DNA of 64,000 nt from Bacteroidota bacterium (lineage in GTDB: Bacteria; Bacteroidota; Bacteroidia; Palsa-965), in the NCBI GenBank assembly GCA_016194975.1, contig JACQAM010000020.1:62001-126000 (forward strand), read 5' to 3'. Positions 36,610 through 49,664 of this stretch are shown piece by piece (positions within the stretch are counted from its first letter, which is position 1; each line of letters starts with the position of its first letter). Both the position numbers and the translations under genes were made by a program. The notes below the pieces were generated by a model. That model saw only the letters and a program-made list of their open reading frames with translations, did not search any database and was not told the origin of the DNA.

Positions 36610-37233
36610 GTGAATCAGATAAAAAAATATTTTCCGGACCTTTCTTCGAATCAATCGGCAAAATTTTCCATGCTCAAAGAGTTGTATGATTTCTGGAATG
36701 CGCAGATCAATGTCATTTCCAGGAAAGATATGGATGATTTTTATGTGCATCATGTTTTGCATTCGCTCTCGATTGCAAAAATTCTTTCCTTCAAACCCGG
36801 AACAGAAATTCTCGATATAGGAACAGGCGGTGGATTTCCCGGAATTCCGCTGGCGATATTATTCCCGGAAACAAAATTTCATCTCGTGGATTCCGTTGGT
36901 AAAAAAATAAAAGTGGTGAATGAAGTGGCGAATGCGTTACAACTCGAAAACATTTCTGCGCAACAGGTGCGTGCGGAAGAACTCGGTTCGAAATATGATT
37001 TTGTTGTTTCGCGTGCGGTGGCGCGTTGGACCGAATTGCAGCTATGGACAATGAAACTCATCAGGAAAAAACAAATGAATGCCATGCCCAACGGATGGTT
37101 CCTGCTCAAAGGCGGTGATCTTGCCGATGAATTCAGTCATGTGAAAAAGAGAAAGGAAGAATATACGATCAGCGATTTTTTTAAAGAAGATTATTTTAAA
37201 GCGAAAAAAGTTGTGTATGTACCGGCGGTGTGA
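36610..37233 (+). CDS. rsmG: 16S rRNA (guanine(527)-N(7))-methyltransferase
   Basis: RsmG methylates G527 of 16S rRNA using S-adenosylmethionine. The 207-residue length is normal. The SAM-binding region is ILDIGTGGGFPGIPLAILFP at about residues 60-79, followed by FHLVDSVGKKIKVVNEVAN and the catalytic-region DFVVSRAVARW. The start is GTG at 36610 (read as MNQIKKYFPDLS, the exact family N-terminus with its KYFP motif), and no ATG lies nearby in frame. It follows the sigma-factor gene by 37 bases on the same strand. Loss of the enzyme in other bacteria gives streptomycin resistance. Confidence 0.96.
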   Translation: MNQIKKYFPDLSSNQSAKFSMLKELYDFWNAQINVISRKDMDDFYVHHVLHSLSIAKILSFKPGTEILDIGTGGGFPGIPLAILFPETKFHLVDSVGKKIKVVNEVANALQLENISAQQVRAEELGSKYDFVVSRAVARWTELQLWTMKLIRKKQMNAMPNGWFLLKGGDLADEFSHVKKRKEEYTISDFFKEDYFKAKKVVYVPAV

Positions 37234-37312: not shown

Positions 37313-37381
37313 TCACAAATGGGCTTGCGAAAAAACGGAGAGCGAAATAAGAAGTGAGAAAAGAGTAAAATATTTTTTCAT
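37313..37381 (-). pseudogene. Truncated 5' leader of a T9SS cargo gene (signal peptide only)
   Basis: Six bases after the RCC1-type gene an ATG opens MKKYFTLFSLLISLSVFSQA and then HL and a TGA stop, 22 codons in all. The leader is the same as that of the array genes (compare MKKYFTLFAILTSLSVFSQA of the gene at 45846-47993). Its cargo is missing, so it is the 5' remnant of an array member, lying at the downstream end of the array. The preceding junction (stop, six bases, ATG) is also the array type. Confidence 0.7.
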
Positions 37382-37387
37382 GGGAAA

Positions 37388-38767
37388 TTATTTTTGAATA
37401 ATAATTTTTTGAGTGAACGATCCTTTTTCGTTTCTCGCATTCACAAAATAAATTCCATTTGCTTGATCAGATAAATCAATTTCCTGGTTTGAGTTTGAAA
37501 TTACGGTTTGATAAATTATTTCTCCGAGAATATTGGTGATGGAAATTTCTGTCGGAGAAAAAATATTTTTTGATTGAAAAACAAATTTTCCGGATGAGGG
37601 GTTTGGGAAAATAGATGTTGCAAGTGGATGTAAATTTTCGTACACGGAAACGGATGAACACAAATAAGTGATTTGAATTGGAATGTTATTATTTACATTG
37701 GAACCGTTTACAAGTTCACCCTCCACACCGTTTCCCCAACCCCAAACCGTTCCATCATTTTTCAAAGCAAGGGAATGATTAGAACTTGATCCTGTAGCGA
37801 TAGCTATTATGCCCGCCAGCCCTGTTACCTGTATAGGAAAATAACTATCAACGAAGAAGTAACCATTGCCAAGTTGTCCATAGCCATCGTATCCCCATGC
37901 CCAAACTGTGCCATCACTTTTCAAGGCAAGCGAATGTCCGAATCCAGCGGCTATCGCAATTATTCCAGTGAGAGCGGGCACCTGAATGGGAATATTTGAA
38001 TCAATGTTAGTGCTATCTCCTAATTGTCCTGTGCTGTTATAGCCCCATGCCCAAACTGTGCTGTCGCTTTTTAATGCGAGTGAATGACGCCATCCGGCAG
38101 AAATTGCTGTCACACCTGTGATCGCAACCGGTACAGGATAATAAGAATCATTATTATTTCCATTTCCTAATGCACCATCAGAATTTACTCCCCATGATAG
38201 TAATGTACTGTCACTTTTCAATGCGAGACCATGAAATCTGCCTGCTGCAATAGCGGTCACATTTGTAAGTGTGTTAGCTGTCGATGGAAAATTTAAATCA
38301 ACATTATTCCCGTTTCCAAGTTGGCCGAATGCGCCCCATCCCCAACACCACACTGTACCATTACTTTGTATGGCAAAGCAATGATTTGTACCTGCCGCAA
38401 TGCTGACAATCTGTGTGAGAGAAGCCACTTGCACGGGCGTGTTTGTGTCTGAATTATTTCCCAGTCCAAGTTGACCTTCTCCGTTATACCCCCATGTCCA
38501 TACCGTACTGTCATTTTTCAACGCAATGGAATGTCCTCCACCCACAGAGATGGCTTTCAAATGCGTCAGCCCGATTGCAGGATAAGGAATATTACTACTG
38601 CTGTTTGATCCATTCCCAAGTTCTCCTTCAGCATTGTATCCGAATGTCCACAAGACACTATCGGGGCAGATAAAAGCGGAACCGTTGCCGCCAACCGCCA
38701 ATTTCTGCGCGGGTGAGATCCGTGCGAGCGAAATAAAAATGGCGAAGAGCGTAAAATATTTTTTCAT
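37388..38767 (-). CDS. RCC1-repeat T9SS-secreted protein
   Basis: A 459-residue exported protein. Signal peptide MKKYFTLFAIFISLARISPA, then seven RCC1-type units (AEGELGNGSNSSSNIPYPAI, GEGQLGLGNNSDTNTPVQVA, FGQLGNGNNVDLNFP, DGALGNGNNNDSYYPVPVAI, TGQLGDSTNIDSNIPIQVPA, YGQLGNGYFFVDSYFPIQVT, EGELVNGSNVNNNIPIQITY), each about 50 residues with a GHSLALKSDGTVWAWGY spine, enough for one seven-bladed propeller. The C-terminus is the array-type sorting domain ending FTQKIIIQK. Function unknown; a surface scaffold is an inference. It is the last intact member of the leftward array, five bases after its upstream neighbour. Confidence 0.92.
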   Translation of the reverse strand: MKKYFTLFAIFISLARISPAQKLAVGGNGSAFICPDSVLWTFGYNAEGELGNGSNSSSNIPYPAIGLTHLKAISVGGGHSIALKNDSTVWTWGYNGEGQLGLGNNSDTNTPVQVASLTQIVSIAAGTNHCFAIQSNGTVWCWGWGAFGQLGNGNNVDLNFPSTANTLTNVTAIAAGRFHGLALKSDSTLLSWGVNSDGALGNGNNNDSYYPVPVAITGVTAISAGWRHSLALKSDSTVWAWGYNSTGQLGDSTNIDSNIPIQVPALTGIIAIAAGFGHSLALKSDGTVWAWGYDGYGQLGNGYFFVDSYFPIQVTGLAGIIAIATGSSSNHSLALKNDGTVWGWGNGVEGELVNGSNVNNNIPIQITYLCSSVSVYENLHPLATSIFPNPSSGKFVFQSKNIFSPTEISITNILGEIIYQTVISNSNQEIDLSDQANGIYFVNARNEKGSFTQKIIIQK

Positions 38768-38772
38768 AAGAA

Positions 38773-41274
38773 TTATTTTTGAATAATAATTTTTTGCGTT
38801 AATGATTCTTTCTCATTCTTCACCGTCACAAAATAAATTCCATTGGCTTGAGCAGATAAATCTATTTCCTGGGTTGGATTAAGAATTTCAGTTTGATAAA
38901 TTATTTCTCCGAGAATGTTGGTGATGGAAATTATTCCTGAGAAATTATTTTCGGGTTGAAAAGTAAATTTTCCTGGAGAAGGATTTGGAGAAATTACAAA
39001 TTCTAAATTTTCATCCTGCGTTTGAATTCCCGAGCAAAGACTGACATTGATTATTGAAGTATCTGAATTTGAACAACCATTCGCATCGGTGTAAGTATAA
39101 ACGATCGGAAAAATTCCTGCGCCGGCTGCTGATGGATTGAAAGTATTTCCAGTTACAGCAATACCCGAATAAATTCCTCCAGCGGGTGTGCCCGCACTTA
39201 ATGTTTGCGCACCCCAGTTCACGCACATGTTTGTGGTGACTTGATTATAAGAAACAGTTGGAAGAGGATTATTTGTAATTGTTACTGTTGCAGTTGTTGA
39301 ATCATTTAGAGAATCTATTACTGTAACTGAATAAGTTCCTGCGCAAAGCCCTGATGCAGTTTGGGCCGTTTGACCATCGCTCCACAAGTAAGAATATGGT
39401 GGAGTTCCATAAGATGCATTTACTGTTGCGGTTCCATTGCAAGGACCATTTCCGCAATTCATATTTGCAGGAATAATATTTGCAGTAAATAATGATTGTT
39501 TCCACACACCATTACTTTCAGTTCCTGCATAAATATCAGTTGCGCTTAATGCCAATGACCAAACATAAGTATTCGCCAAACCATTATTCATGGGAGCCCA
39601 ACTGTTTCCATTATTAGTTGACACAAACACTCCACCGCCCCAAGTACCAGCATAAAGATTTGTTCCGTCTGTCACTAAAGTCATAACATAAGTATTTGTC
39701 AAACCATTATTAACTGCTGTCCAACTAACACCATTATTCGTTGACATAACTACTCCACCATTTCCGTATGCCATTCCGGCAAAAATAGTTGTACCGATTA
39801 CAGCAAATGAAGTAACTGGATTGTTTTGTGAAACAAATACTTGTGTCCATGATCCTCCGTTGTTTGTTGAACGATACACGCCTTCACCCGTTCCATCTTT
39901 AGCGGCAAAAATATTTTGTCCAATTATTGCCAAGGCACTTATGGGAATATAAGACCCCAAACCATTATTGACAGCTGTCCAGCTATTGCCATTGTTGGTT
40001 GATAAAAATACGCCGCCAGCCCAAGTTCCGGCAAAAATATTTGATCCGCTTATAGCAAGTGCATGAACGTCAGTATACGTTAAGCCATTATTGATTGCTG
40101 TCCAATTGCCTCCATTGTTAGTGGATAAATATACGCCACCTCCAGTACCCGCAAAAAGATTTGTTCCATCCGAGGCAAATGAATAAATACCTCCATTTGT
40201 CATTCCGTTATTTGTCGCATTCCAACTTCCTCCATTGTTGCCAGATAAAAAAACACCAGCTGGACCATAATCGCCAGCAAAAATATTTGTTCCGTATACT
40301 GCCAATGCGGAAATCAACGTATTTGCCAAACCATTGTTAGAGGCCGTCCAATTGCTGCCAGTGTCACTTGATAAAAAAATGCCATCTCCAAATGTTCCCG
40401 CAAAAAGATTTGTTCCACAAGTAGCCAATGACAATATGGTCGTATCACTCAAACCATTATTGATGGAACTCCAATTGCTTCCGGTATCACTTGATAAAAA
40501 TATTCCGCCAGTCCAAGTGCCTGCAAAAATATTTGTTCCGATTGTTGTAAATGATGAGATATTTAAATCTGTCACACCATTATTGATCGCCGTCCACAAT
40601 CCTCCGTTGTTGGTAGATAAAAAGATGCCTCCACCTGCAGTTCCAGCAAAAATATTTGTTCCGCTTATCGTTAATGAATTAACAAACGTGAAGGTGAGAC
40701 CATTATTGACTGCTATCCAATTGTTTCCATTATTGGTTGACTTAAAAACACCATTCTGCGTTCCTGCAAAAATTGTTGTTCCGATTGTGTCCAATGATGT
40801 TACAGTAATATAACCAAGCCCATTGTTGACCGCAGTCCATGAGTTTCCATTGTTGGTGGATAAAAATACTCCGCCGCTATTTGTTCCTGCAAAAATATTT
40901 GTGTCGATAATCATCAATGAATTGATATCGTTATAGGTCAATCCAGTGTTGACGGGCGTCCAACTATTTCCAGTATCAGTTGATAAAAGAACTCCAGCTT
41001 GCGTTCCTGCGAAAGTATTTGTTCCGCTTACTGCCAATGCTTTTACCCTTGTGAAGTAGTTAAAAGCATTATTATTCACGCACGCCCAACTGCTTCCTGA
41101 ATCCCTTGACAAAAACACGCCACCATAATAAGTTCCCGCAAAAATATTTGTTCCGCTTGCTGCAATAGAACTGATCGTTCCGTCATATGGGCCATTGGAT
41201 TGTTGCCATTGTGCATTTAGAATGCTTGAGGAAAATAAAAATCCAGATAGGAAACTAAGTAGTTTTGCTTTCAT
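38773..41274 (-). CDS. YCF48/BNR-like tandem-repeat T9SS-secreted protein with SprB repeat
   Basis: An 833-residue exported protein. After the signal peptide (SSSILNAQ) come 14 units of about 41 residues, each with a phrase like TNIFAGTNSGGVFLSTNNGN and SWTAVNNGL, a photosynthesis-stability-factor/BNR-type beta-propeller pattern found in surface proteins. At about residues 600-670 is one SprB-type repeat (CNGTATVNASYGTPPYSYLW), the unit of the Flavobacterium gliding adhesin SprB, followed by an Ig-like domain and the array sorting domain (FVISPNPSPGKFTFQPENNF ... LTQKIIIQK). The last 230 residues are nearly those of the gene at 45846-47993, while the front parts are unrelated. Confidence 0.92.
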   Translation of the reverse strand: MKAKLLSFLSGFLFSSSILNAQWQQSNGPYDGTISSIAASGTNIFAGTYYGGVFLSRDSGSSWACVNNNAFNYFTRVKALAVSGTNTFAGTQAGVLLSTDTGNSWTPVNTGLTYNDINSLMIIDTNIFAGTNSGGVFLSTNNGNSWTAVNNGLGYITVTSLDTIGTTIFAGTQNGVFKSTNNGNNWIAVNNGLTFTFVNSLTISGTNIFAGTAGGGIFLSTNNGGLWTAINNGVTDLNISSFTTIGTNIFAGTWTGGIFLSSDTGSNWSSINNGLSDTTILSLATCGTNLFAGTFGDGIFLSSDTGSNWTASNNGLANTLISALAVYGTNIFAGDYGPAGVFLSGNNGGSWNATNNGMTNGGIYSFASDGTNLFAGTGGGVYLSTNNGGNWTAINNGLTYTDVHALAISGSNIFAGTWAGGVFLSTNNGNSWTAVNNGLGSYIPISALAIIGQNIFAAKDGTGEGVYRSTNNGGSWTQVFVSQNNPVTSFAVIGTTIFAGMAYGNGGVVMSTNNGVSWTAVNNGLTNTYVMTLVTDGTNLYAGTWGGGVFVSTNNGNSWAPMNNGLANTYVWSLALSATDIYAGTESNGVWKQSLFTANIIPANMNCGNGPCNGTATVNASYGTPPYSYLWSDGQTAQTASGLCAGTYSVTVIDSLNDSTTATVTITNNPLPTVSYNQVTTNMCVNWGAQTLSAGTPAGGIYSGIAVTGNTFNPSAAGAGIFPIVYTYTDANGCSNSDTSIINVSLCSGIQTQDENLEFVISPNPSPGKFTFQPENNFSGIISITNILGEIIYQTEILNPTQEIDLSAQANGIYFVTVKNEKESLTQKIIIQK

Positions 41275-41299
41275 TCGAATTTATTTTTGAATTACAGTT

Positions 41300-42715
41300 T
41301 CATTTTACAATGCACAATTTCTGTTTGATCGTTTCTCCATTGGGCCTTGTGAACCTAATGAAATAAATTTCCATCGCAACACCTGCTGAATAAAAATCAT
41401 TCTGGTAGTCTGATGTTTTGAAAATCAATCTTCCTCTTTCATCAAAAATTTCAAGAGCTGAATTAGGTTCAAGTCCGGAAATTTCAAATGAACCATCTCC
41501 AAATAAAACTGTAGGAATAAAAAATGCAGTTGGCGTTACAAGGATCGGCAAAACCGTTATAGTAATTGAATCTGAAAAGGAACAACCAGTTGGATTTGTT
41601 ACCGTAAGTGTGTAAGTGGTCGTTTGTGTTGGGCCGGCGATCGGATTCATGCAGGTGTCGCAACTCAATCCCGTGGAAGGATTCCATTGGAAAGTTCCGG
41701 AACCTGTCGCAGTGAGTTGAGTGGTGTCTCCTGAATAAATGAGTGTATCACCAGTTATGCTTATTGAAATTATAGGGAAAGAAAATTCCCATTGACTATT
41801 TGCAAATTGATTCGAACCGTTCAATCCTGTTGTAATGTATCCACTGCAATCGATTGAAAACCCAACCGCAGCTACACGTCCATTGCCTCCGAAATTTGCT
41901 CTTTGAGTCCAGTTATTTAAAACTGGATCATATTGCCAGAAATCACTACGGTTAATACCGGCGTAATCTCCACCACAACCCAAATAGCCCTTATTTCCGA
42001 GTGAAAATCCGGTTGCCAGAACTCTTGCGACACCGGGAAAATTTGTTTTTTGAGTCCACACATTGGTTGCTGGATCATATTGCCAAAAATCCTGCACAAA
42101 AAAACCGGGACCGTTTTGTCCTGTTCCGATATATCCTTTATCAAGGACGGAAAATCCACAAGCGGAAGAAATTCCTCCTCCACCGTAATTTGCTTTTTGA
42201 GTCCATGCATCCGTCAATGGATCATATTCCCAGAAATCACTTAAAGGAAAGATCATGCCTGAGCCCGTTCCGATGTACCCTTTATTACCAATAGAAAAAC
42301 CAACAGCCTGGCACCTGGCTATTCCTCCGAAGTATGCCTTAGGCGTCCATACATTGGTAATCGGATCATACTCCCAGAAATCCTGATAAAAAATAGCACT
42401 TGTCGGATCTTCTCCTGTTCCGATATAACCATTTCCACCAATAGAAAATCCAACAGCTTGAGTTCTTGCACCACCACCAAAATTTGCTTTTTGCATCCAT
42501 GTATCGCTATCAGAATCATATTCCCAGAAATCATTTGTTCCGGAATTCGTCATGTCCTGTCCCGTGCCGACATATCCTTTATTTCCTATGGAGAATCCGG
42601 TTGCGGAAGTTTTTCCGTTGCCTGTAAATGTTGCTTTTTGCACCCATGTTCCCTGAGCTGAGAGTATGATGGAAATAAAAAACAAAAAAAGAAGTGAGGC
42701 GGAATATTTACTCAT
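41300..42715 (-). CDS. Kelch-type propeller T9SS-secreted protein
   Basis: A 471-residue protein with a signal peptide (IILSAQ) and kelch-like units of about 55 residues: GFSIGNKGYVGTG followed by NDFWEYDSDSDTWMQKANFG, repeated six times. A PKD/Ig-like linker with a CDTCMNPIAGPTQTTTYTLT stretch follows. The C-terminus (SFEISGLEPNSALEIFDERG ... IYFIRFTRPNGETIKQKLCIVK) is a diverged sorting domain unlike the other array members. It is paralogous to the gene at 44467-45702. Adhesive or scaffold role is inferred from the propeller type. Gaps to the neighbours are 25 and 6 bases. Confidence 0.88.
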   Translation of the reverse strand: MSKYSASLLFLFFISIILSAQGTWVQKATFTGNGKTSATGFSIGNKGYVGTGQDMTNSGTNDFWEYDSDSDTWMQKANFGGGARTQAVGFSIGGNGYIGTGEDPTSAIFYQDFWEYDPITNVWTPKAYFGGIARCQAVGFSIGNKGYIGTGSGMIFPLSDFWEYDPLTDAWTQKANYGGGGISSACGFSVLDKGYIGTGQNGPGFFVQDFWQYDPATNVWTQKTNFPGVARVLATGFSLGNKGYLGCGGDYAGINRSDFWQYDPVLNNWTQRANFGGNGRVAAVGFSIDCSGYITTGLNGSNQFANSQWEFSFPIISISITGDTLIYSGDTTQLTATGSGTFQWNPSTGLSCDTCMNPIAGPTQTTTYTLTVTNPTGCSFSDSITITVLPILVTPTAFFIPTVLFGDGSFEISGLEPNSALEIFDERGRLIFKTSDYQNDFYSAGVAMEIYFIRFTRPNGETIKQKLCIVK

Positions 42716-42721
42716 TGCAAT

Positions 42722-44431
42722 TTATTTTTGAATGATTATTTTCTGTGTGAACGATTCTACTTTCGCTTTCACATTCACAAAATAAATTCCATCGGGTTGA
42801 GAACTTAAGTCAATTTCCTGGTTCGAATTATTTATTTCAGTTTGATAAATTATTTCTCCGAGGATGTTGGTGATGCAAATTATTCCGGAAAAATTATTTT
42901 CGAATTGTAAAGAAAATTTTCCTGAAGAAGGATTTGGAGAAATATGAAAAGAAAACTCCGGTATTGTTTCTATTCCGAGCGTAGTGGTATCGCTACGGAG
43001 TTTGGTAAGAAAAAAATCTGCGCTATTGGGAAAAACGCATGAATTAATGAGAGTATTATTTCCGAATGAGATGGTAGCCCCGCCAAAATAACCGGTAACG
43101 AAACATTCGTTCGCGGTGCGTGCCGCAATTGCAGCCGGGTATTCGTTATTAGAAGAAACAGCGCTCATTCCGTAAATAAAATTTCCGGAGCTGTCATACT
43201 TTACGACAAAAAGATCGCTGCTGCCGGGATTGGTATTCGGTAAAACTGTAGAACCGAATGTAATATTATACCCTTCGTATTCTCCGGTTGTGTAAACTGC
43301 GCCAGTTAAGTCAACACTTATTCCGGATCCGAATTCATCACTTCCGGCGCAAGGAGCCGAAGTACCGATACCGGTTCGAACCCACAATGGATTTCCCGCA
43401 GAATCAATTTTACAAAAGAAAAGGTCAAAAGTGCCGGAGCAGGGTGCAGAATTCAGAGCGATTAAACTTCCTAACCGGAGCGTATCGCCGGAAAATTCTC
43501 CTGTAATGAAAACATTTCCCATTGCATCTGAAGCGATGGCAATACTTGCATCATTGGAGTAATTATCGCTTGAAAAATTCTTTACCAATAATAAATTTCC
43601 ATTGGTGTTGTATTTCGCTACAAAAATATCTCCGCCGAATGTTGAAGAATAGTTAGATATAGAAATAGTATCGAAAGAAACGGATGAACTGTAAAATGCT
43701 CCGGTTATCCAGATGAAGTTGTTCGCATCTGTACAGATAGAAATAGCTTCGTCAATATTGGTTCCACCTGCGGATCTTGCCCATAAAGAATTTCCAGTTT
43801 GACTGAACCCTGCAATTAAGCAATCGAGTGACGATCCGGTAGTGTCGCGATTAATCAGCGTGTCTGCTCCAATAATGAGTTTTCTGCTGCTGAAAAATCC
43901 CGTAATAAAAATATTTCCGGTTCGTGTGCAGGTTATTCTATTGGCCTGATCGTTTCCATCCCCTCCAAAATGTTTTGCCCATATTTCATTTCCGGAATTA
44001 TCGAATTTCGCGATGAATAATTCCGCGCCGGAACCCTGCTGGCGGATCATGGTATCGGCGCCAAGTATTAATGTGTCAGAATTGAAATACCCGGATATAA
44101 AACTATTTCCTGATGCATCAATTGCAATTCCCTGTCCTGATGCGAAACCTTTTCTTGCTCCTTTTCCCCAGAGGATGGCACCTGAAGAATCATATTTCGC
44201 AATGAAAACTCCGGCATCGGGCAGAATAGTACTGTTCATGATTACCGAATCGCTGCTAAGCGTTCCAGTAACATAAGTGTTCCCGATCGAATCTGAGACA
44301 ACAGCAGATCCCATGCTACCGTTGTAATCAATTCCGTTGAATGTGTTTGCCCACTGCCATACCGGAGATTGTGATCGCATGGATAATGTGAACAGAAGAA
44401 CTGTACCCACGAGAAGAATTGTTTTTTTCAT
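42722..44431 (-). CDS. SBBP-repeat T9SS-secreted protein (third of three)
   Basis: A 569-residue protein with a signal peptide (LFTLSMRSQ) followed by SBBP-type units of about 50 residues (GNTYVTGTLSSDS, GNSFISGYFNSDTLILGADT, GNIFITGFFSSRKLIIGADT, GNVFITGEFSGDTLRLGSLI), each ending in a FIAKYDSSGAILWGKGARKG-like half. It ends in the array-type sorting domain (SFHISPNPSSGKFSLQFENN ... FTQKIIIQK). Its leader differs from the MKKYFTLF type, so only the 3' cassette is shared. A beta-propeller in the extracellular space is likely. Function unknown. Confidence 0.9.
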   Translation of the reverse strand: MKKTILLVGTVLLFTLSMRSQSPVWQWANTFNGIDYNGSMGSAVVSDSIGNTYVTGTLSSDSVIMNSTILPDAGVFIAKYDSSGAILWGKGARKGFASGQGIAIDASGNSFISGYFNSDTLILGADTMIRQQGSGAELFIAKFDNSGNEIWAKHFGGDGNDQANRITCTRTGNIFITGFFSSRKLIIGADTLINRDTTGSSLDCLIAGFSQTGNSLWARSAGGTNIDEAISICTDANNFIWITGAFYSSSVSFDTISISNYSSTFGGDIFVAKYNTNGNLLLVKNFSSDNYSNDASIAIASDAMGNVFITGEFSGDTLRLGSLIALNSAPCSGTFDLFFCKIDSAGNPLWVRTGIGTSAPCAGSDEFGSGISVDLTGAVYTTGEYEGYNITFGSTVLPNTNPGSSDLFVVKYDSSGNFIYGMSAVSSNNEYPAAIAARTANECFVTGYFGGATISFGNNTLINSCVFPNSADFFLTKLRSDTTTLGIETIPEFSFHISPNPSSGKFSLQFENNFSGIICITNILGEIIYQTEINNSNQEIDLSSQPDGIYFVNVKAKVESFTQKIIIQK

Positions 44432-44466
44432 GACTTGTTTTTTTCAGAAAATTTATTCGTGTTCGA

Positions 44467-45702
44467 TCAATGTGCAATAATTAATTTTTGTGTTGTGAAT
44501 TCACTTTCATTTTCCATTGAATTTAATCTTGCCAGATAAATTCCGTTACTCAGAAATGTAAGGTCAGCATCTTCTGAACAGGATTCAATGTTTGTTTCAA
44601 AAAGAAGGTCTCCGTTCATGTTGTAAATACGTAGTGCAGATCTTCTGATCTTCGTTTTAATAAAAATGTGTCCGTCAGAAACTGATGGGTAAATGCTTGC
44701 TTCTGAAATTGCATTTTGTTCTTCAACGCTTACATCGAGTGGTATATATTCCCAGAAGTCCCGGTATGCAGTGCTCGGATTAAAACCGGTTCCTACGTAT
44801 CCATTTCCATTGATCGTAAAAGCAACCGGGTAAACGCGCGCCACTCCTCCGAAATTTGTTCTTTGATTCCAGACATCAGTCGCAGGATCATATTCGCGCA
44901 AATCCTGCGAGGGGCCGGGGAAACCTGTTGCAACATATCCTCTATTATTAATTGAAAATCCAACAGCTGCGTAAATAGGACCACCGGCATAATTTGCTTT
45001 TGCAGTCCAGGTATCAGTGACCTGATTATATTCTTTAAAGTCACTGAACGTTGTACTCCATGTAGTACCAGTTCCAACGTAAGCTTTTGTTCCGATTGTA
45101 AAACAAATTGCACCCGCTCTTCCTGCTCCTGGAAAACTTGCCTTTTGATTCCATGGAAGCCCTCCAATGGTATCTGCTGTAGGATCATATTCCCAGAGAT
45201 CATTGTAAAATGAATTAAGGCCGGCATTTGTTCCCATTGAAACATATCCTTTGTTTCCGATTGAAAAACCAACGCCGAGTCTGCGTCCTGCTCCGATCAA
45301 ACTTGCAACAGGAGACCAGGTATTCGTAAGTTGGTTCCATGACCAAAAATCCTGCAATGCATTTCCTGCATTAGTTGTTCCGGTTCCTACATATCCTTTT
45401 GTTCCGATAGAAAATCCGACGGCATCAAATCTTCCGCCTCCTCCATAGTTCGCTTTTTGCATCCATGTATCTGATACCGGGTCGTACTCCCAGAAATCAA
45501 CATAAGCAAATCCTCCATCAGGCGATCCTGTTCCAATGTATCCTTTTGTTCCGATGGAAAAACCAACTGCGGTGTATCTTCCCGTGCCGCCGTAAGTCGC
45601 TTTTTGTATCCAGGTGTTCTGGGACTGCAATTCGTTCTTAAATCCAAAACAAGAAATGCACAAAGGAAGGAGGATGGCGAATGAATATTTTTTTGTTTTC
45701 AT
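44467..45702 (-). CDS. Kelch-type propeller T9SS-secreted protein (second)
   Basis: A 411-residue exported protein related to the gene at 41300-42715. It has a long N-terminal segment with signal-like LLPLCISCF and kelch units (GFSIGTKGYIGTG, DFWEYDPVSDTWMQKANYG). The C-terminal 75 residues (SIYPSVSDGHIFIKTKIRRS ... FTTQKLIIAH) are a diverged sorting domain with an extra Cys. One oddity: the leader begins MKTKKYSFAILLPLCISCFG, with Cys residues possibly in a lipobox. A truncated leader remnant lies directly upstream (26 bases). Confidence 0.88.
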   Translation of the reverse strand: MKTKKYSFAILLPLCISCFGFKNELQSQNTWIQKATYGGTGRYTAVGFSIGTKGYIGTGSPDGGFAYVDFWEYDPVSDTWMQKANYGGGGRFDAVGFSIGTKGYVGTGTTNAGNALQDFWSWNQLTNTWSPVASLIGAGRRLGVGFSIGNKGYVSMGTNAGLNSFYNDLWEYDPTADTIGGLPWNQKASFPGAGRAGAICFTIGTKAYVGTGTTWSTTFSDFKEYNQVTDTWTAKANYAGGPIYAAVGFSINNRGYVATGFPGPSQDLREYDPATDVWNQRTNFGGVARVYPVAFTINGNGYVGTGFNPSTAYRDFWEYIPLDVSVEEQNAISEASIYPSVSDGHIFIKTKIRRSALRIYNMNGDLLFETNIESCSEDADLTFLSNGIYLARLNSMENESEFTTQKLIIAH

Positions 45703-45728
45703 TGTATTTTTTTTAATTGATTATTTTT

Positions 45729-45839
45729 TTAATTCAAAACAATTTGTTCTCCCGCACTTCTCGCCCACGCCCAATTTGGCGATTGAGAAAAAGCGGAGAG
45801 CGAAATGAAAATTGCAAAGAGGGTAAAATATTTTTTCAT
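45729..45839 (-). pseudogene. Truncated 5' end of an SBBP-type T9SS gene
   Basis: Six bases after the neighbouring SBBP gene stop an ATG opens MKKYFTLFAIFISLSAFSQS, then PNWAWARSAG and EQIVLN with a TAA stop: 36 codons. The intact neighbours begin SVFSQAPNWAWAKSAGG, so the first 30 codons match and the rest of the propeller and the sorting domain are lost. The stop is reached six codons after the homology ends. It therefore marks a deleted or recombined array member. Confidence 0.75.
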
Positions 45840-45845
45840 GACAAT

Positions 45846-47993
45846 TTATTTTTGAATGATTATTTTTTGCGTGAATGATTCCTTTTCGTTTTTCACATTC
45901 ACAAAATAAATTCCATCTGGCTGAGAACTCAAGTCAATATCAGTTGTGAGTTGCCGGTTGTCAGTTGCACTGCTGTAAATTATTTCTCCGAGAACGTTGG
46001 TGATGGAAATTTCTTTCGGTGAAAAATTGTTCTCGGATTGTACCGTAAATTTTCCCGAAGAAGGATTTGGAGAAATTACAAATTCTGAATTTTCATCCTG
46101 CGTTTGAATACCTGAACAAAGACTTACAATGACGAAAGAAGTGTCTGAATTTGTGCAGCCGTTAGAAGAAGTATAAGTGTAGATGATCTGAAAAGTTCCA
46201 GGGCCTGCAACGGAAGGATTAAATGTATTTCCCGAAACAGCAGTTCCGGAATAAATTCCTCCTGCGGGTATGCCTGCACTCAATGTTTGCGCGCCCCAGT
46301 TCACACACATGTTTGTTGTGATTTGATTATAGGAAACAGTAGGCAAAGGATTATTTGTAATTGCTATAGAAGCCGTTGTAGAATCATTTACCGCATCGAC
46401 AATAATTACAGAATAAGTTCCTGCGCAAAGTCCGGTGGCGGTTTGTGTTGTTTGTCCGTCGCTCCATAAATAAGTGTAAGGTGGAGCTCCATAAGCAACA
46501 TTTGCATTTACAGACCCATTGCAAGGTCCGTTTCCGCAGTCCATATTGACGGAAATAATATTTGCAGTTAAATAAGAATTTATTTTTGATGTGAAAATAT
46601 CATTACCACTCCAAGCATTCAGGGTGTCATTGTAAAAAATCAGTTGACCAATAAAATTTCCAGTAGTGTATACACTCCCACTAGTTCCAACATTGATTGA
46701 GATGCCTTCTCCCGATCCTCCTGATCCTCCCTCACCTTTTGCCCAAACTAAATTTCCTGAAGAATTATATTTTGCAACGAAGATATCTGAACCCAATGGC
46801 CCTTTAGTTAAGGAGTCACTTCCAAAAAAAATTACGGGGCTACTAAAAGATCCTGTGATAAAAACATTTGCACATGCATCGGTGCTGATGCCATAACCGA
46901 TATCCTCAAAATTTCCATACGCACTTTTAGACCAAAGTACATTACCCGAAACATCATATTTTGTAATAAAAACGTCATCACATCCTGAAAAACAATTTGC
47001 ACTATTGGTTAGAGAAGTATTGCCAAAATTAATTGTCCCGCTACCAAAAAGTCCAGTTACAAAGACATTTCCACTTGCATCGGTACTGATGCTGTTACCT
47101 CCATTAACTGTGTTTCCTCCTGCATTATTCGCCCAAATCACAGTTCCTGACGGAGAATATTTGGTAACAAAAAAATCATGGTTGCCGGGATTGGTTAAAG
47201 TTATATTTCCAAACGTGATTGTGGAACTTCCAAAAAAACCTGTAACAAATATATTTCCACTTGCATCAGTGCTAATGCTTGCCCCTGCATCAGAGGAAAT
47301 GCCACCAGCACTTGTAGCCCATATTACATTTCCGAAGGCATCATATCCTGCTACAAAAAAATCATATGTATTACCGGTAATATCAGCATTCGATAACGTG
47401 ATTGCGCCAAAGGCAATAGTTGAGCTATAAAAACTGCCAGTAATAAAAATATTTCCGTTTGAATCCGTGCTAATACTGTACGACAAATCCGAACTAATTC
47501 CTCCCGCACTTTTCGCCCATATTACATTTCCGGAAGCATCATATTTTGCAATAAAAACATCTGAACTGTTAGGTCCATTTGTATTTGTTAATGTGTCATT
47601 GTCAAAAATGATAATTGGGCTCCAAAATTGACCAGTCAATAATACATTTCCATTCAAATCAATTGCTATACACAAACTTTCGTCCCAATCTGTACCGCCT
47701 ATACTTTTTACCCACAGGATATTTCCTGAAGAATCATATTTAGCAATAAAAATATCGCACGTGTTACCTGTATTATCAACATTTGTCAATGAGTCGTTAT
47801 CTAAATAGATCTTTGCAGAGAAAAAATATCCGGTAACGAATACGTTTCCATTTAAATCTGAGCAGATGCTTTTTCCATAATCATCTCTTCCGTTCCATGA
47901 CCCTCCCGCACTTTTCGCCCACGCCCAATTCGGGGCTTGAGAAAAAACGGAGAGTGAAGTAAGAATCGCGAAGAGTGTAAAATATTTTTTCAT
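45846..47993 (-). CDS. SBBP-repeat T9SS-secreted protein with SprB repeat (second of three)
   Basis: A 715-residue exported protein. Leader MKKYFTLFAILTSLSVFSQA is followed by SBBP-type propeller units to about residue 475 (GNVFVTGYFFSAKIYLDNDS, DIFIAKYDSSGNILWVKSIG, GGNSISTDASGNVFVTGLFG), then a SprB repeat (CNGSVNANVAYGAPPYTYLW), an Ig-like domain, and the array sorting domain. A stretch of the sorting domain, YSSATDNRQLTTDIDLSS, replaces the usual QTEINNSNQEIDLSS and corresponds to DNA made of GTTGTGAGTTGCCGGTTGTC-like words, as if a dispersed intergenic repeat had been inserted in frame. It ends FTQKIIIQK. Confidence 0.92.
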   Translation of the reverse strand: MKKYFTLFAILTSLSVFSQAPNWAWAKSAGGSWNGRDDYGKSICSDLNGNVFVTGYFFSAKIYLDNDSLTNVDNTGNTCDIFIAKYDSSGNILWVKSIGGTDWDESLCIAIDLNGNVLLTGQFWSPIIIFDNDTLTNTNGPNSSDVFIAKYDASGNVIWAKSAGGISSDLSYSISTDSNGNIFITGSFYSSTIAFGAITLSNADITGNTYDFFVAGYDAFGNVIWATSAGGISSDAGASISTDASGNIFVTGFFGSSTITFGNITLTNPGNHDFFVTKYSPSGTVIWANNAGGNTVNGGNSISTDASGNVFVTGLFGSGTINFGNTSLTNSANCFSGCDDVFITKYDVSGNVLWSKSAYGNFEDIGYGISTDACANVFITGSFSSPVIFFGSDSLTKGPLGSDIFVAKYNSSGNLVWAKGEGGSGGSGEGISINVGTSGSVYTTGNFIGQLIFYNDTLNAWSGNDIFTSKINSYLTANIISVNMDCGNGPCNGSVNANVAYGAPPYTYLWSDGQTTQTATGLCAGTYSVIIVDAVNDSTTASIAITNNPLPTVSYNQITTNMCVNWGAQTLSAGIPAGGIYSGTAVSGNTFNPSVAGPGTFQIIYTYTSSNGCTNSDTSFVIVSLCSGIQTQDENSEFVISPNPSSGKFTVQSENNFSPKEISITNVLGEIIYSSATDNRQLTTDIDLSSQPDGIYFVNVKNEKESFTQKIIIQK

Positions 47994-47999
47994 GATAAT

Positions 48000-49664
48000 T
48001 TATTTTTGAATGATTATTTTTTGCGTGAATGATTCCTTTTCGTTTTTCACATTCACAAAATAAATTCCATCCGGCTCGGAACTCAAGTCGATCTCTGAAT
48101 TGGAATTTTGAATTTGTGTTTGATAGATTATTTCTCCCAGGATGTTGGTGATGGAAATAGTTCCGGAGAAATTATTTTCAGCTTTGATGGTGAAGATTCC
48201 GGAGGAAGGGTTGGGAGCATAATTAAGATTTTCTTTTGAGAAGTTGATTTGATTAATCCCTACCCCGAGATTATCAATTTTGGAAATAAACATATCGTGA
48301 GATGATCCAGTATTATCAATATTAGTCAGCGTTGTTGATCCAAAAGCTAAAGTCGGACTATCGTACCACCCCGCTAAATAAATATTTTCAGATTGATCCT
48401 TTGCTGCTCCCGTAACAAAATCTGCCATACTCCCGCCGACGGATTTCGCCCAAATAACATTTCCAACGGTGTCGTATTTAGCCAGAAATATATCTGAAAC
48501 TCCTCCACTATATACAAGAGTATCGAATCCAAAAATCAAATTTGAACTCGAAAAGACACCTCCTGCGAAAGCGTTTCCCACCGAGTCAGTTGTCAGTGCG
48601 TAAGCCATTTCTGTCATAATACCTCCAGCACTTCTTGCCCAAACAAGATTTCCAGTGGCTGAATATTTTGCTATAAACATATCATTGATATTCATGGATG
48701 AATTAATCAAAGTATCGAGCCCCAGAATTAAAGTATCTGATGAAAAATACCCAGCTATAAAAACATTACCTTTTTGATCTGCCTGACCACAAGTTGAAAC
48801 ATCGTTATCATAATTCTGTCCTCCGGCACTCCGCGCCCAAATGACGTTTCCAGCCCCGTCAAACTTGACCAAAAAAATATCGTGATTTCCTGTGGTATTA
48901 AGTGTTATTGAACCGAAAGTAATTGAAGACGTAAAACTTCCAGTCAAGTATACATATCCAGAATCATCAGTAAAAATGGCGGAGGAATTATCATCTGAAC
49001 CACCTCCTGCGGTAAGAGACCACGAGGGGATACCATTAGTGCTATATTTTTCTATGAAAATATCATTTGAACCCGCATAACTGTTGAACAAAGTGTCGCT
49101 ATCAAATATTATGTACGCCCCGGAGTAATTCCCAGTCACGAAAACATTACCAGAAGCGTCAGCACAAACCGAACTTGGATAAGTGTATGGATCGCCCCCA
49201 GAATTTGTCGCCCATTGTGGATTTCCATTACTATCATACTTTACAACGAACATGTCGGCATTATTTGGAAAGGGATTAGTCAACGTTGTCGACCCAAAGG
49301 AAATAGTTGAGCTCGAGAAAAATCCTGCCACGACAATATTGCCAGAAGGATCTCCGCTGACTGATTGTGCACCGTTGGCATTACTTCCAGAAGCACTTTG
49401 TGCCCATATAACATTTCCATTAACGTCATATTTAACCAGAAACATTTGACCATTCCATGTGTTTGTCAAAGTCGTTGAGCCAAAAACTATTGAAGAGCTG
49501 ATGAAATTGCCCGCAACGTAAATATTTCCTGTTCCGTCAGCATAAATAGAATTGGCTCCATCGAAAGAATTTCCTCCCGCACTTTTCGCCCACGCCCAAT
49601 TCGGCGCTTGCGAAAAAACGGAGAGGGAAATAAAAATCGCGAAGAGTGTGAGTTTTGTTTTCAT
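48000..49664 (-). CDS. SBBP-repeat T9SS-secreted protein (first of three)
   Basis: A 554-residue exported protein. Leader MKTKLTLFAIFISLSVFSQA, then SBBP units (NIYVAGNFISSSIVFGSTTL, NIVVAGFFSSSTISFGSTTL, NVFVTGNYSGAYIIFDSDTL, YVYLTGSFTSSITFGSITLN), with the second half MFLVKYDVNGNVIWAQSASG repeating, and a final array-type sorting domain (YAPNPSSGIFTIKAENNFSG ... FTQKIIIQK). Its ATG overlaps the stop of the outer-membrane protein gene by four bases (ATGA), showing translational coupling with the start of the array. Confidence 0.92.
   Translation of the reverse strand: MKTKLTLFAIFISLSVFSQAPNWAWAKSAGGNSFDGANSIYADGTGNIYVAGNFISSSIVFGSTTLTNTWNGQMFLVKYDVNGNVIWAQSASGSNANGAQSVSGDPSGNIVVAGFFSSSTISFGSTTLTNPFPNNADMFVVKYDSNGNPQWATNSGGDPYTYPSSVCADASGNVFVTGNYSGAYIIFDSDTLFNSYAGSNDIFIEKYSTNGIPSWSLTAGGGSDDNSSAIFTDDSGYVYLTGSFTSSITFGSITLNTTGNHDIFLVKFDGAGNVIWARSAGGQNYDNDVSTCGQADQKGNVFIAGYFSSDTLILGLDTLINSSMNINDMFIAKYSATGNLVWARSAGGIMTEMAYALTTDSVGNAFAGGVFSSSNLIFGFDTLVYSGGVSDIFLAKYDTVGNVIWAKSVGGSMADFVTGAAKDQSENIYLAGWYDSPTLAFGSTTLTNIDNTGSSHDMFISKIDNLGVGINQINFSKENLNYAPNPSSGIFTIKAENNFSGTISITNILGEIIYQTQIQNSNSEIDLSSEPDGIYFVNVKNEKESFTQKIIIQK

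What the first reader, a model, noticed from the sequence alone, without database searches (positions are those of the whole stretch)
38773..47993. Same 230-residue SprB-repeat and sorting block joined to two unrelated propellers
The end of the YCF48-type protein and the end of the SBBP protein at 45846 share nearly every residue in a SprB repeat, an Ig-like domain and the sorting tail (for example YSYLWSDGQTAQTASGLCAG against YTYLWSDGQTTQTATGLCAG, and MCVNWGAQTLSAG in both), while the front parts share nothing. This is strong evidence of module fusion in this locus.
Basis: seen in the sequence. Interest (0 to 1): 0.6.

Follow-up and report, generated by a model that had tools for sequence, protein, structure and literature searches.

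The report
Shared secretion tail on unrelated propellers
In a row of seven neighbouring genes for secreted propeller-shaped proteins, unrelated front ends carry nearly the same back end, because neighbouring genes have exchanged their export tails by recombination; the theme is known from other bacteria of this phylum, but the traces left here are unusually legible.

Summary
Genes A (38773-41274) and B (45846-47993) share a 238-residue 3' block of about 75% amino-acid and 77% nucleotide identity: SprB repeat, Ig-like domain, T9SS sorting tail. Their fronts (BNR/sortilin-type propeller, SBBP propeller) are unrelated. Ungapped identity jumps from 32% (chance 27%) to 77% at one interdomain point, so the predicted sharp boundary is there.

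The reading needs refining. Only SprB plus Ig is special to A and B. The sorting tail belongs to five of the seven genes of a tandem array, forms its own clade among 287 tails, and is a mosaic: the last 72 nt of B's tail equal those of its neighbour D (71 of 72), while A's tail start is closest to C. Gutted gene starts (two orphan signal peptides) and a tail-end scar remain between genes. A second array in the same genome repeats the pattern with other tails.

So this is recombination-driven tail sharing in a T9SS cargo array: module fusion plus later homogenisation. KLIKK proteases of Tannerella forsythia are the known precedent. Direction of transfer, timing and function are not shown. 'YCF48-type' is not supported by Pfam.

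The parts
38773..41274 (-). Gene A: signal peptide (by eye), BNR/sortilin-type propeller front, then SprB + Ig-like + T9SS type A tail
38776..39492 (-). A's shared 3' block: SprB 39259-39492, Ig-like 39031-39258, sorting tail 38776-39030; join to the propeller at 39486-39492
45846..47993 (-). Gene B: SBBP propeller front, then SprB + Ig-like + T9SS type A tail
45849..46575 (-). B's shared 3' block: SprB 46341-46574, Ig-like 46113-46340, tail 45849-46112; join at 46568-46575
48000..49664 (-). Gene D: SBBP propeller directly followed by array-type tail (no SprB/Ig)
42722..44431 (-). Gene C: SBBP-type propeller directly followed by array-type tail
37388..38767 (-). Gene E: RCC1 propeller with array-type signal peptide and array-type tail
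41300..42715 (-). Gene K1: Kelch propeller whose tail is not of the array type (weak CHU_C match)
44467..45702 (-). Gene K2: Kelch propeller whose tail is not of the array type (28-35% to array tails)
48003..48074 (-). Last 72 nt of D's tail, 71 of 72 identical to B's (exchange tract)
45849..45920 (-). Last 72 nt of B's tail, 71 of 72 identical to D's (exchange tract)
47900..48074 (-). Gene-straddling repeat copy 1: D tail end, stop, 6 nt, B signal peptide and first SBBP codons
   Evidence: 158 of 175 identical to copy 2
45746..45920 (-). Gene-straddling repeat copy 2: B tail end, stop, 6 nt, orphan gene start
45729..45839 (-). Orphan gene start after B: signal peptide plus first SBBP residues, 36 codons then stop (gutted gene)
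37313..37381 (-). Second orphan signal peptide after E, 22 codons then stop
41281..41292 (-). Scar ATTCAAAAATAA: last codons and stop of an array tail, standing free between K1's stop and A's start

Best explanation
This is a tandem array of T9SS cargo genes whose 3' ends have moved and been homogenised by recombination inside the array. A copy of the SprB-Ig-tail segment was joined, at an interdomain linker, to two different propellers (SBBP in B, BNR/sortilin-type in A). Separately, the sorting tail of five genes has been kept alike by piecewise exchange between neighbours, helped by a repeat that straddles gene borders (tail end, stop, 5-6 nt spacer, start of the next signal peptide). Gene bodies between such repeats have been deleted or replaced, leaving orphan signal peptides and a tail scar. 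At the protein level each product is most likely exported by Sec through its signal peptide and then through the outer membrane by the T9SS through its tail, with the propeller displayed outside and SprB/Ig acting as a spacer. Shown: the shared block, the sharp join, the locus-specific tail clade, the mosaic, the remnants. Inferred: export, display, the recombination route, and which gene was donor.
For: Sharp join 0.32 to 0.77 identity. SprB and Ig: A-B 71% and 80%; best elsewhere in the compared set 60%. Tails of A-E: exclusive clade of 5 among 287 tails, FastTree support 94; 65-79% among themselves, at most 56% to others. Mosaic: D-B run of 21 agreeing polymorphic sites, 0 of 10000 permutations reach it; third positions D-B 0.38, 0.39, then 0.96 in the last 72 nt. 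Tail 24-mer with up to 2 mismatches: 6 places in the 4.1-Mb genome, 5 of them these tails, the sixth in the second array. ATTCAAAAATAAATTNNNATG: 4 exact places in the genome, all in this array, one being the scar before A. Orphan gene starts. Straddling repeat 158 of 175. Pairs with unrelated fronts and tail identity at least 0.6: 8 of 143 linked, 0 of 9088 unlinked; the 8 come from two arrays. T9SS genes present: SprA, GldM.
Against: The AU test on SBBP fronts does not reject B, C and D as one clade (p 0.248; B with D 0.185), so for these three plain gene duplication with slow tails is not excluded; only A and E have truly unrelated fronts. A-B permutation runs confined to the tail are not significant (5 sites, p 0.50). 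In the same-genus homologue of B (L119, 50% in the front) the SprB position holds another domain and the tail is of another type, so the B-to-A direction is not established. Outside this genome the pattern is scarce: 1 of 35 and 1 of 50 linked pairs without front similarity reach 60% in the tail. The AlphaFold model of the block was poor (mean pLDDT 51) and does not support the domain borders except the tail.
Confidence: 0.78

Rival explanations
1. Ordinary whole-gene tandem duplication and divergence: all genes descend from one ancestor, and fronts diverged faster than tails.
For: Fronts of B, C and D are homologous SBBP propellers (32-42%), and a B-C-D clade is not rejected. K1 and K2 fronts are 46% alike.
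Against: A (BNR/sortilin) and E (RCC1) belong to other Pfam families and give no hit to the SBBP fronts. Identity does not decline but jumps at one point. Unlinked gene pairs with comparably diverged fronts (30-50%) have a median tail identity of 0.24, maximum 0.52, n = 184.
Confidence: 0.08
2. Independent capture of a module that is common in the genome: SprB, Ig and tail are widespread, and A and B each picked up one.
For: 227 matches to the block or parts of it in this genome and matches in all 12 family genomes searched.
Against: No other copy is near: 44-47% at best outside this genome for Ig plus tail, at most 60% for any single domain, against 71-80% between A and B. 0 of 9088 unlinked pairs with unrelated fronts reach 0.6 in the tail.
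Confidence: 0.05
3. The tails are alike because of selection, not exchange: genes of one operon keep a co-adapted export signal, while the SprB-Ig fusion was a single old event.
For: Tails are short functional signals; genes are packed head to tail (gaps of 5-143 nt).
Against: Protein-level selection does not explain third positions at 0.96 in one 72-nt tract next to 0.38-0.39, nor identity that runs on through the stop codon into the spacer and the next signal peptide. K1 and K2 in the same array carry other tails.
Confidence: 0.07
4. Artefact of metagenome assembly that stitched genes of different strains.
For: The genome seems to be a metagenome bin (28 contigs), and repeats invite misassembly (inference).
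Against: The array lies inside a 146-kb contig; the tail copies differ from each other by 20-35% in nucleotides overall, too much for assembler collapse; a second array on another contig shows the same pattern.
Confidence: 0.02

Closest known systems
KLIKK proteases of Tannerella forsythia (PMC4404884; passages read)
   Same: Six genes in two clusters; unrelated passenger domains (different protease families) with one nearly identical T9SS C-terminal domain. The authors call the virtually identical tails unusual, suggest a recent common origin, and suggest fusion of older protease genes to signal-peptide and C-terminal sequences.
   Different: Passengers here are beta-propellers, not proteases. 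Tails are 65-79% alike, not virtually identical, and end KIIIQK. The mosaic within tails, the straddling repeat, the orphan starts and the scar are not mentioned in the passages I read.
Porphyromonas gingivalis Kgp / RgpA / HagA adhesin domains (PMC5266723; passages read)
   Same: T9SS-exported surface proteins built of shared modules behind different fronts, with combinatorial variation attributed to domain rearrangement and genetic exchange.
   Different: There the variable unit is an internal adhesin repeat, and evidence comes from strain comparison; here it is the C-terminal sorting tail within one tandem array.
T9SS type A sorting domain proteins in general (Por_Secre_tail PF18962 / TIGR04183)
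   Same: A, B, C, D and E pass the Pfam cut-off.
   Different: Typical tails in this genome are about 24% identical to each other (median of 9870 pairs), not 65-79%.

Membership tests
T9SS type A cargo proteins | C-terminal type A sorting domain over the curated cut-off | tested here: met
   PF18962 for A 46.7 and B 57.3 bits, cut-off 27; K2 sits at 27.2, K1 has only a weak CHU_C match
T9SS type A cargo proteins | N-terminal signal peptide | tested here: inconclusive
   Typical basic-hydrophobic starts seen by eye; no prediction program was run
T9SS type A cargo proteins | Host genome encodes the secretion system | tested here: met
   SprA_N 555 bits, GldM_1st 129 bits; the other components were not searched
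T9SS type A cargo proteins | Shown secretion and tail cleavage | not testable with these tools
   needs culture or heterologous expression
KLIKK-type shared-tail cluster | One tail on unrelated passengers, genes clustered | tested here: met
KLIKK-type shared-tail cluster | Passengers are proteases and the tail ends -KLIKK | tested here: not met
   propeller families; tails end KIIIQK. So it resembles the set, but is not a member
SprB repeat (PF13573) | Pfam cut-off 28 bits | tested here: inconclusive
   A 30.2 bits over the cut-off, B 23.8 bits under it
   No such model at E up to 10; best are Sortilin-Vps10 68.8 bits and, far weaker, BNR; the sole PDB relative at E up to 0.01 is a BNR-repeat glycosyl hydrolase, 3b7f
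SBBP propeller (B's front) | PF06739 over the cut-off | tested here: met
   43.1 bits, cut-off 20.5

The most novel reading that the evidence does not exclude
The gene-straddling repeat (tail end, stop, short spacer, next signal peptide) works as a recombination adaptor: because both ends of many genes in such an array are alike, homologous exchange can drop, duplicate or replace the propeller between them while keeping it exportable. The array would then be a passenger-swapping device that diversifies the cell surface with ready-to-export fronts, and each array in a genome would carry its own adaptor.
Probability: 0.3. Interest if true: 0.65.

Novelty: new variant of a known kind. Interest (0 to 1): 0.45.

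Why it matters
Bacteroidota genomes hold many T9SS cargo proteins (at least 150 type A tails here), and how so many unrelated domains came by an export tail is not well explained. Here the steps can be read from one locus: a fusion at a linker, tails kept alike within an array but not between arrays, exchange tracts between neighbours, and remnants of removed genes. It gives a concrete, testable route by which a lineage can put new domains on its surface.

Tried and rejected
Whole-gene duplication as the sole cause was rejected for A and E (unrelated fronts) but not for B, C and D (AU test p 0.248). B as the certain donor of A's block was dropped after the same-genus homologue L119 turned out to have another domain in the SprB place and another tail. 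The private A-B link of the sorting tail was dropped: A's tail is 74% identical to B's and 73% to C's by BLAST, and 0.69 to B, 0.74 to C in the tail alignment. A first permutation test gave A-B a run of 29 sites, but that stretch included the linker, which only A and B share; restricted to the tail the A-B run is 5 sites, p 0.50, so I do not use the first number. The structure model of the block had mean pLDDT 51 and was not searched against structure libraries. Paper searches for T9SS with gene conversion (5 papers, one of use), type A sorting domain with domain shuffling (0), T9SS with domain shuffling (0), SBBP repeat in Bacteroidetes (0) and type IX secretion with concerted evolution (0) found no report of this pattern beyond the two precedents; the library misses most subscription journals.

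Sampling limits: the 141 own-genome tails come from 60 stretches that I chose because or one search listed matches there; one search scored 150 of 282 candidates and I did not fetch all of them. The 20 stretches of relatives were chosen for clustered matches and are not a random sample. Linked means within 15 kb on one contig. The A-B pair itself is not among the 8 of 143, because its SprB-Ig part counts as a front hit there.

Full report
What is there. On the minus strand, in order of reading, seven genes stand head to tail: D (48000-49664, SBBP propeller), B (45846-47993, SBBP), K2 (44467-45702, Kelch), C (42722-44431, SBBP type), K1 (41300-42715, Kelch), A (38773-41274, BNR/sortilin-type), E (37388-38767, RCC1). 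Pfam finds the T9SS type A tail over its cut-off in A, B, C, D and E, just at it in K2 (27.2 bits, cut-off 27), and only a weak CHU_C match in K1. SprA and GldM of the secretion system are in the genome.

The observation. A and B share their last 238-240 residues. Per domain: SprB 71% (77 aa), Ig-like 80% (76 aa), tail 74% (88 aa). The SprB name is backed by Pfam for A (30.2 bits, cut-off 28) and falls short for B (23.8). The fronts share nothing detectable. Ungapped nucleotide identity is 0.32 over the 240 nt before the join (null 0.265, sd 0.035) and 0.77 over the 456 nt after it, with no intermediate bin. The join follows the last propeller strand in both proteins (by inspection). Third codon positions agree in 0.40 to 0.80 of sites per 15-codon bin of the SprB-Ig part, so the joining is not recent, apart from a stretch around the linker and tail start where A and B agree at 0.93 to 0.97.

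The tail tells another story. It belongs to A, B, C, D and E alike. Identities inside the array are 65-79%; elsewhere in this genome and in the relatives compared at most 56%. Among 287 tails (141 own, 146 from relatives) the five form an exclusive clade, FastTree support 94; A and B are not sisters in it. Their fronts are old: B's front is 42% to D but 54% and 50% to fronts in other genomes; D's is 41% to B and 46% elsewhere. A tree of 24 SBBP fronts puts B, C and D apart, but the AU test does not reject holding them together (p 0.248), which must be kept in mind.

The tail is a mosaic. In the last 72 nt D and B agree at 71 of 72 sites and at 0.96 of third positions; in the two 75-nt stretches before, third positions agree at 0.38 and 0.39. 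The run of 21 agreeing polymorphic sites was reached in 0 of 10000 permutations. A is closest to C in the first stretch (third positions 0.88) and to E in the middle one (0.83, against 0.78 for C). These pair A with C and E, and B with D, while SprB-Ig pairs A with B. A single duplication does not give that.

The likeness crosses gene borders. The end of D with the start of B, and the end of B with what follows it, agree at 158 of 175 nt through the stop codon, the 6-nt spacer and the signal peptide. What follows B is not a gene but a gutted start: signal peptide, first SBBP residues, stop after 36 codons (45729-45839). A second orphan signal peptide follows E (37313-37381). Between K1 and A stands ATTCAAAAATAAATTCGAATG: the last codons and stop of an array tail, the usual spacer, and A's start, though K1 has a tail of another kind. 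The pattern ATTCAAAAATAAATTNNNATG has four exact places in the whole genome, all in this array. I read these as marks of removed or replaced gene bodies.

It is not one locus alone. On contig C7 (316208-320904) stand SBBP, RCC1, SBBP with their own tail type: 82% between the first SBBP and the RCC1 gene, 62% between the RCC1 and the second SBBP gene, without front similarity, and again with alike spacer and signal-peptide starts. The RCC1 fronts of the two arrays are 46% identical to each other, yet each carries the tail of its own array. RCC1 relatives were found in 13 of the 39 genomes searched, own genome included, and within the genus in 2 of 7, so the front is sporadic. Over the 141 own tails, pairs without front similarity reach 0.6 tail identity in 8 of 143 linked and 0 of 9088 unlinked cases; the 8 come from these two arrays. 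The reverse also occurs: three genes on C24 have fronts 58-60% alike but tails at 0.25-0.33. In relatives, 1 of 35 linked pairs without front similarity in 20 chosen stretches and 1 of 50 in 80 loci reach 60%, against 0 of 7656 pairs from different loci. So it recurs but is uncommon.

Mechanism. Best supported: a fusion of a SprB-Ig-tail segment to a second propeller, together with piecewise exchange among tails of the array. The straddling repeat offers homology at both ends of several genes, so exchange can remove or replace what lies between. Export and display follow from the established role of type A tails and were not tested. The donor is open: the same-genus homologue of B (L119) keeps the SBBP front and an Ig-like domain, but has another domain in the SprB place and another tail.

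Comparison. The nearest precedent is the KLIKK protease set of Tannerella forsythia, where unrelated proteases in two clusters carry one virtually identical T9SS tail and the authors suggest recent common origin and fusion (PMC4404884, passages). P. gingivalis gingipains and HagA show shuffling of adhesin modules behind different fronts (PMC5266723, passages). This locus works like them; it is not a KLIKK member (no proteases, other terminal motif). New here, as far as I could see, are the propeller passengers, array-specific tails in two arrays of one genome, the exchange tract, the straddling repeat and the remnants. Searches found no such description in the held library.

Noticed in passing
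own genome contig C7:316208-320904 (locus L081): Second array, SBBP-RCC1-SBBP, with its own tail type (82% and 62% between neighbours) and alike spacer and signal-peptide starts.
   Followed up: partly
own genome C24:42956-49704 (L083) and C23:280847-284670 (L089): Reverse case: neighbouring genes with fronts 57-60% alike but tails only 0.25-0.33 identical.
   Followed up: no
own genome C4:21968-26999 (L085): Two neighbouring genes with tails 94% alike while fronts are 49% alike; perhaps another exchange tract.
   Followed up: no
own genome C24:32426-36111 (L082): Neighbouring genes with unrelated fronts and 58% alike tails; a third, weaker case.
   Followed up: no
L224 (G014 contig C64) 1220-3982: Gene without a clear Pfam front family next to an SBBP gene, tails 94% identical, no front similarity.
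   Followed up: partly
window 41300-42715 and 44467-45702: The two Kelch genes have fronts 46% alike but tails unlike each other and unlike the array's; they may be later insertions.
   Followed up: partly
window 40334-40813 (+): Open frame antisense to A's propeller repeats; most likely a by-product of the repeat composition.
   Followed up: no
own genome: 150 T9SS type A tails over the Pfam cut-off listed (150 of 282 candidates scored) in a 4.1-Mb genome, many in head-to-tail groups.
   Followed up: partly
window 36610-37233 (+): A GidB-type rRNA methyltransferase gene converges on the array right behind the second orphan signal peptide.
   Followed up: no
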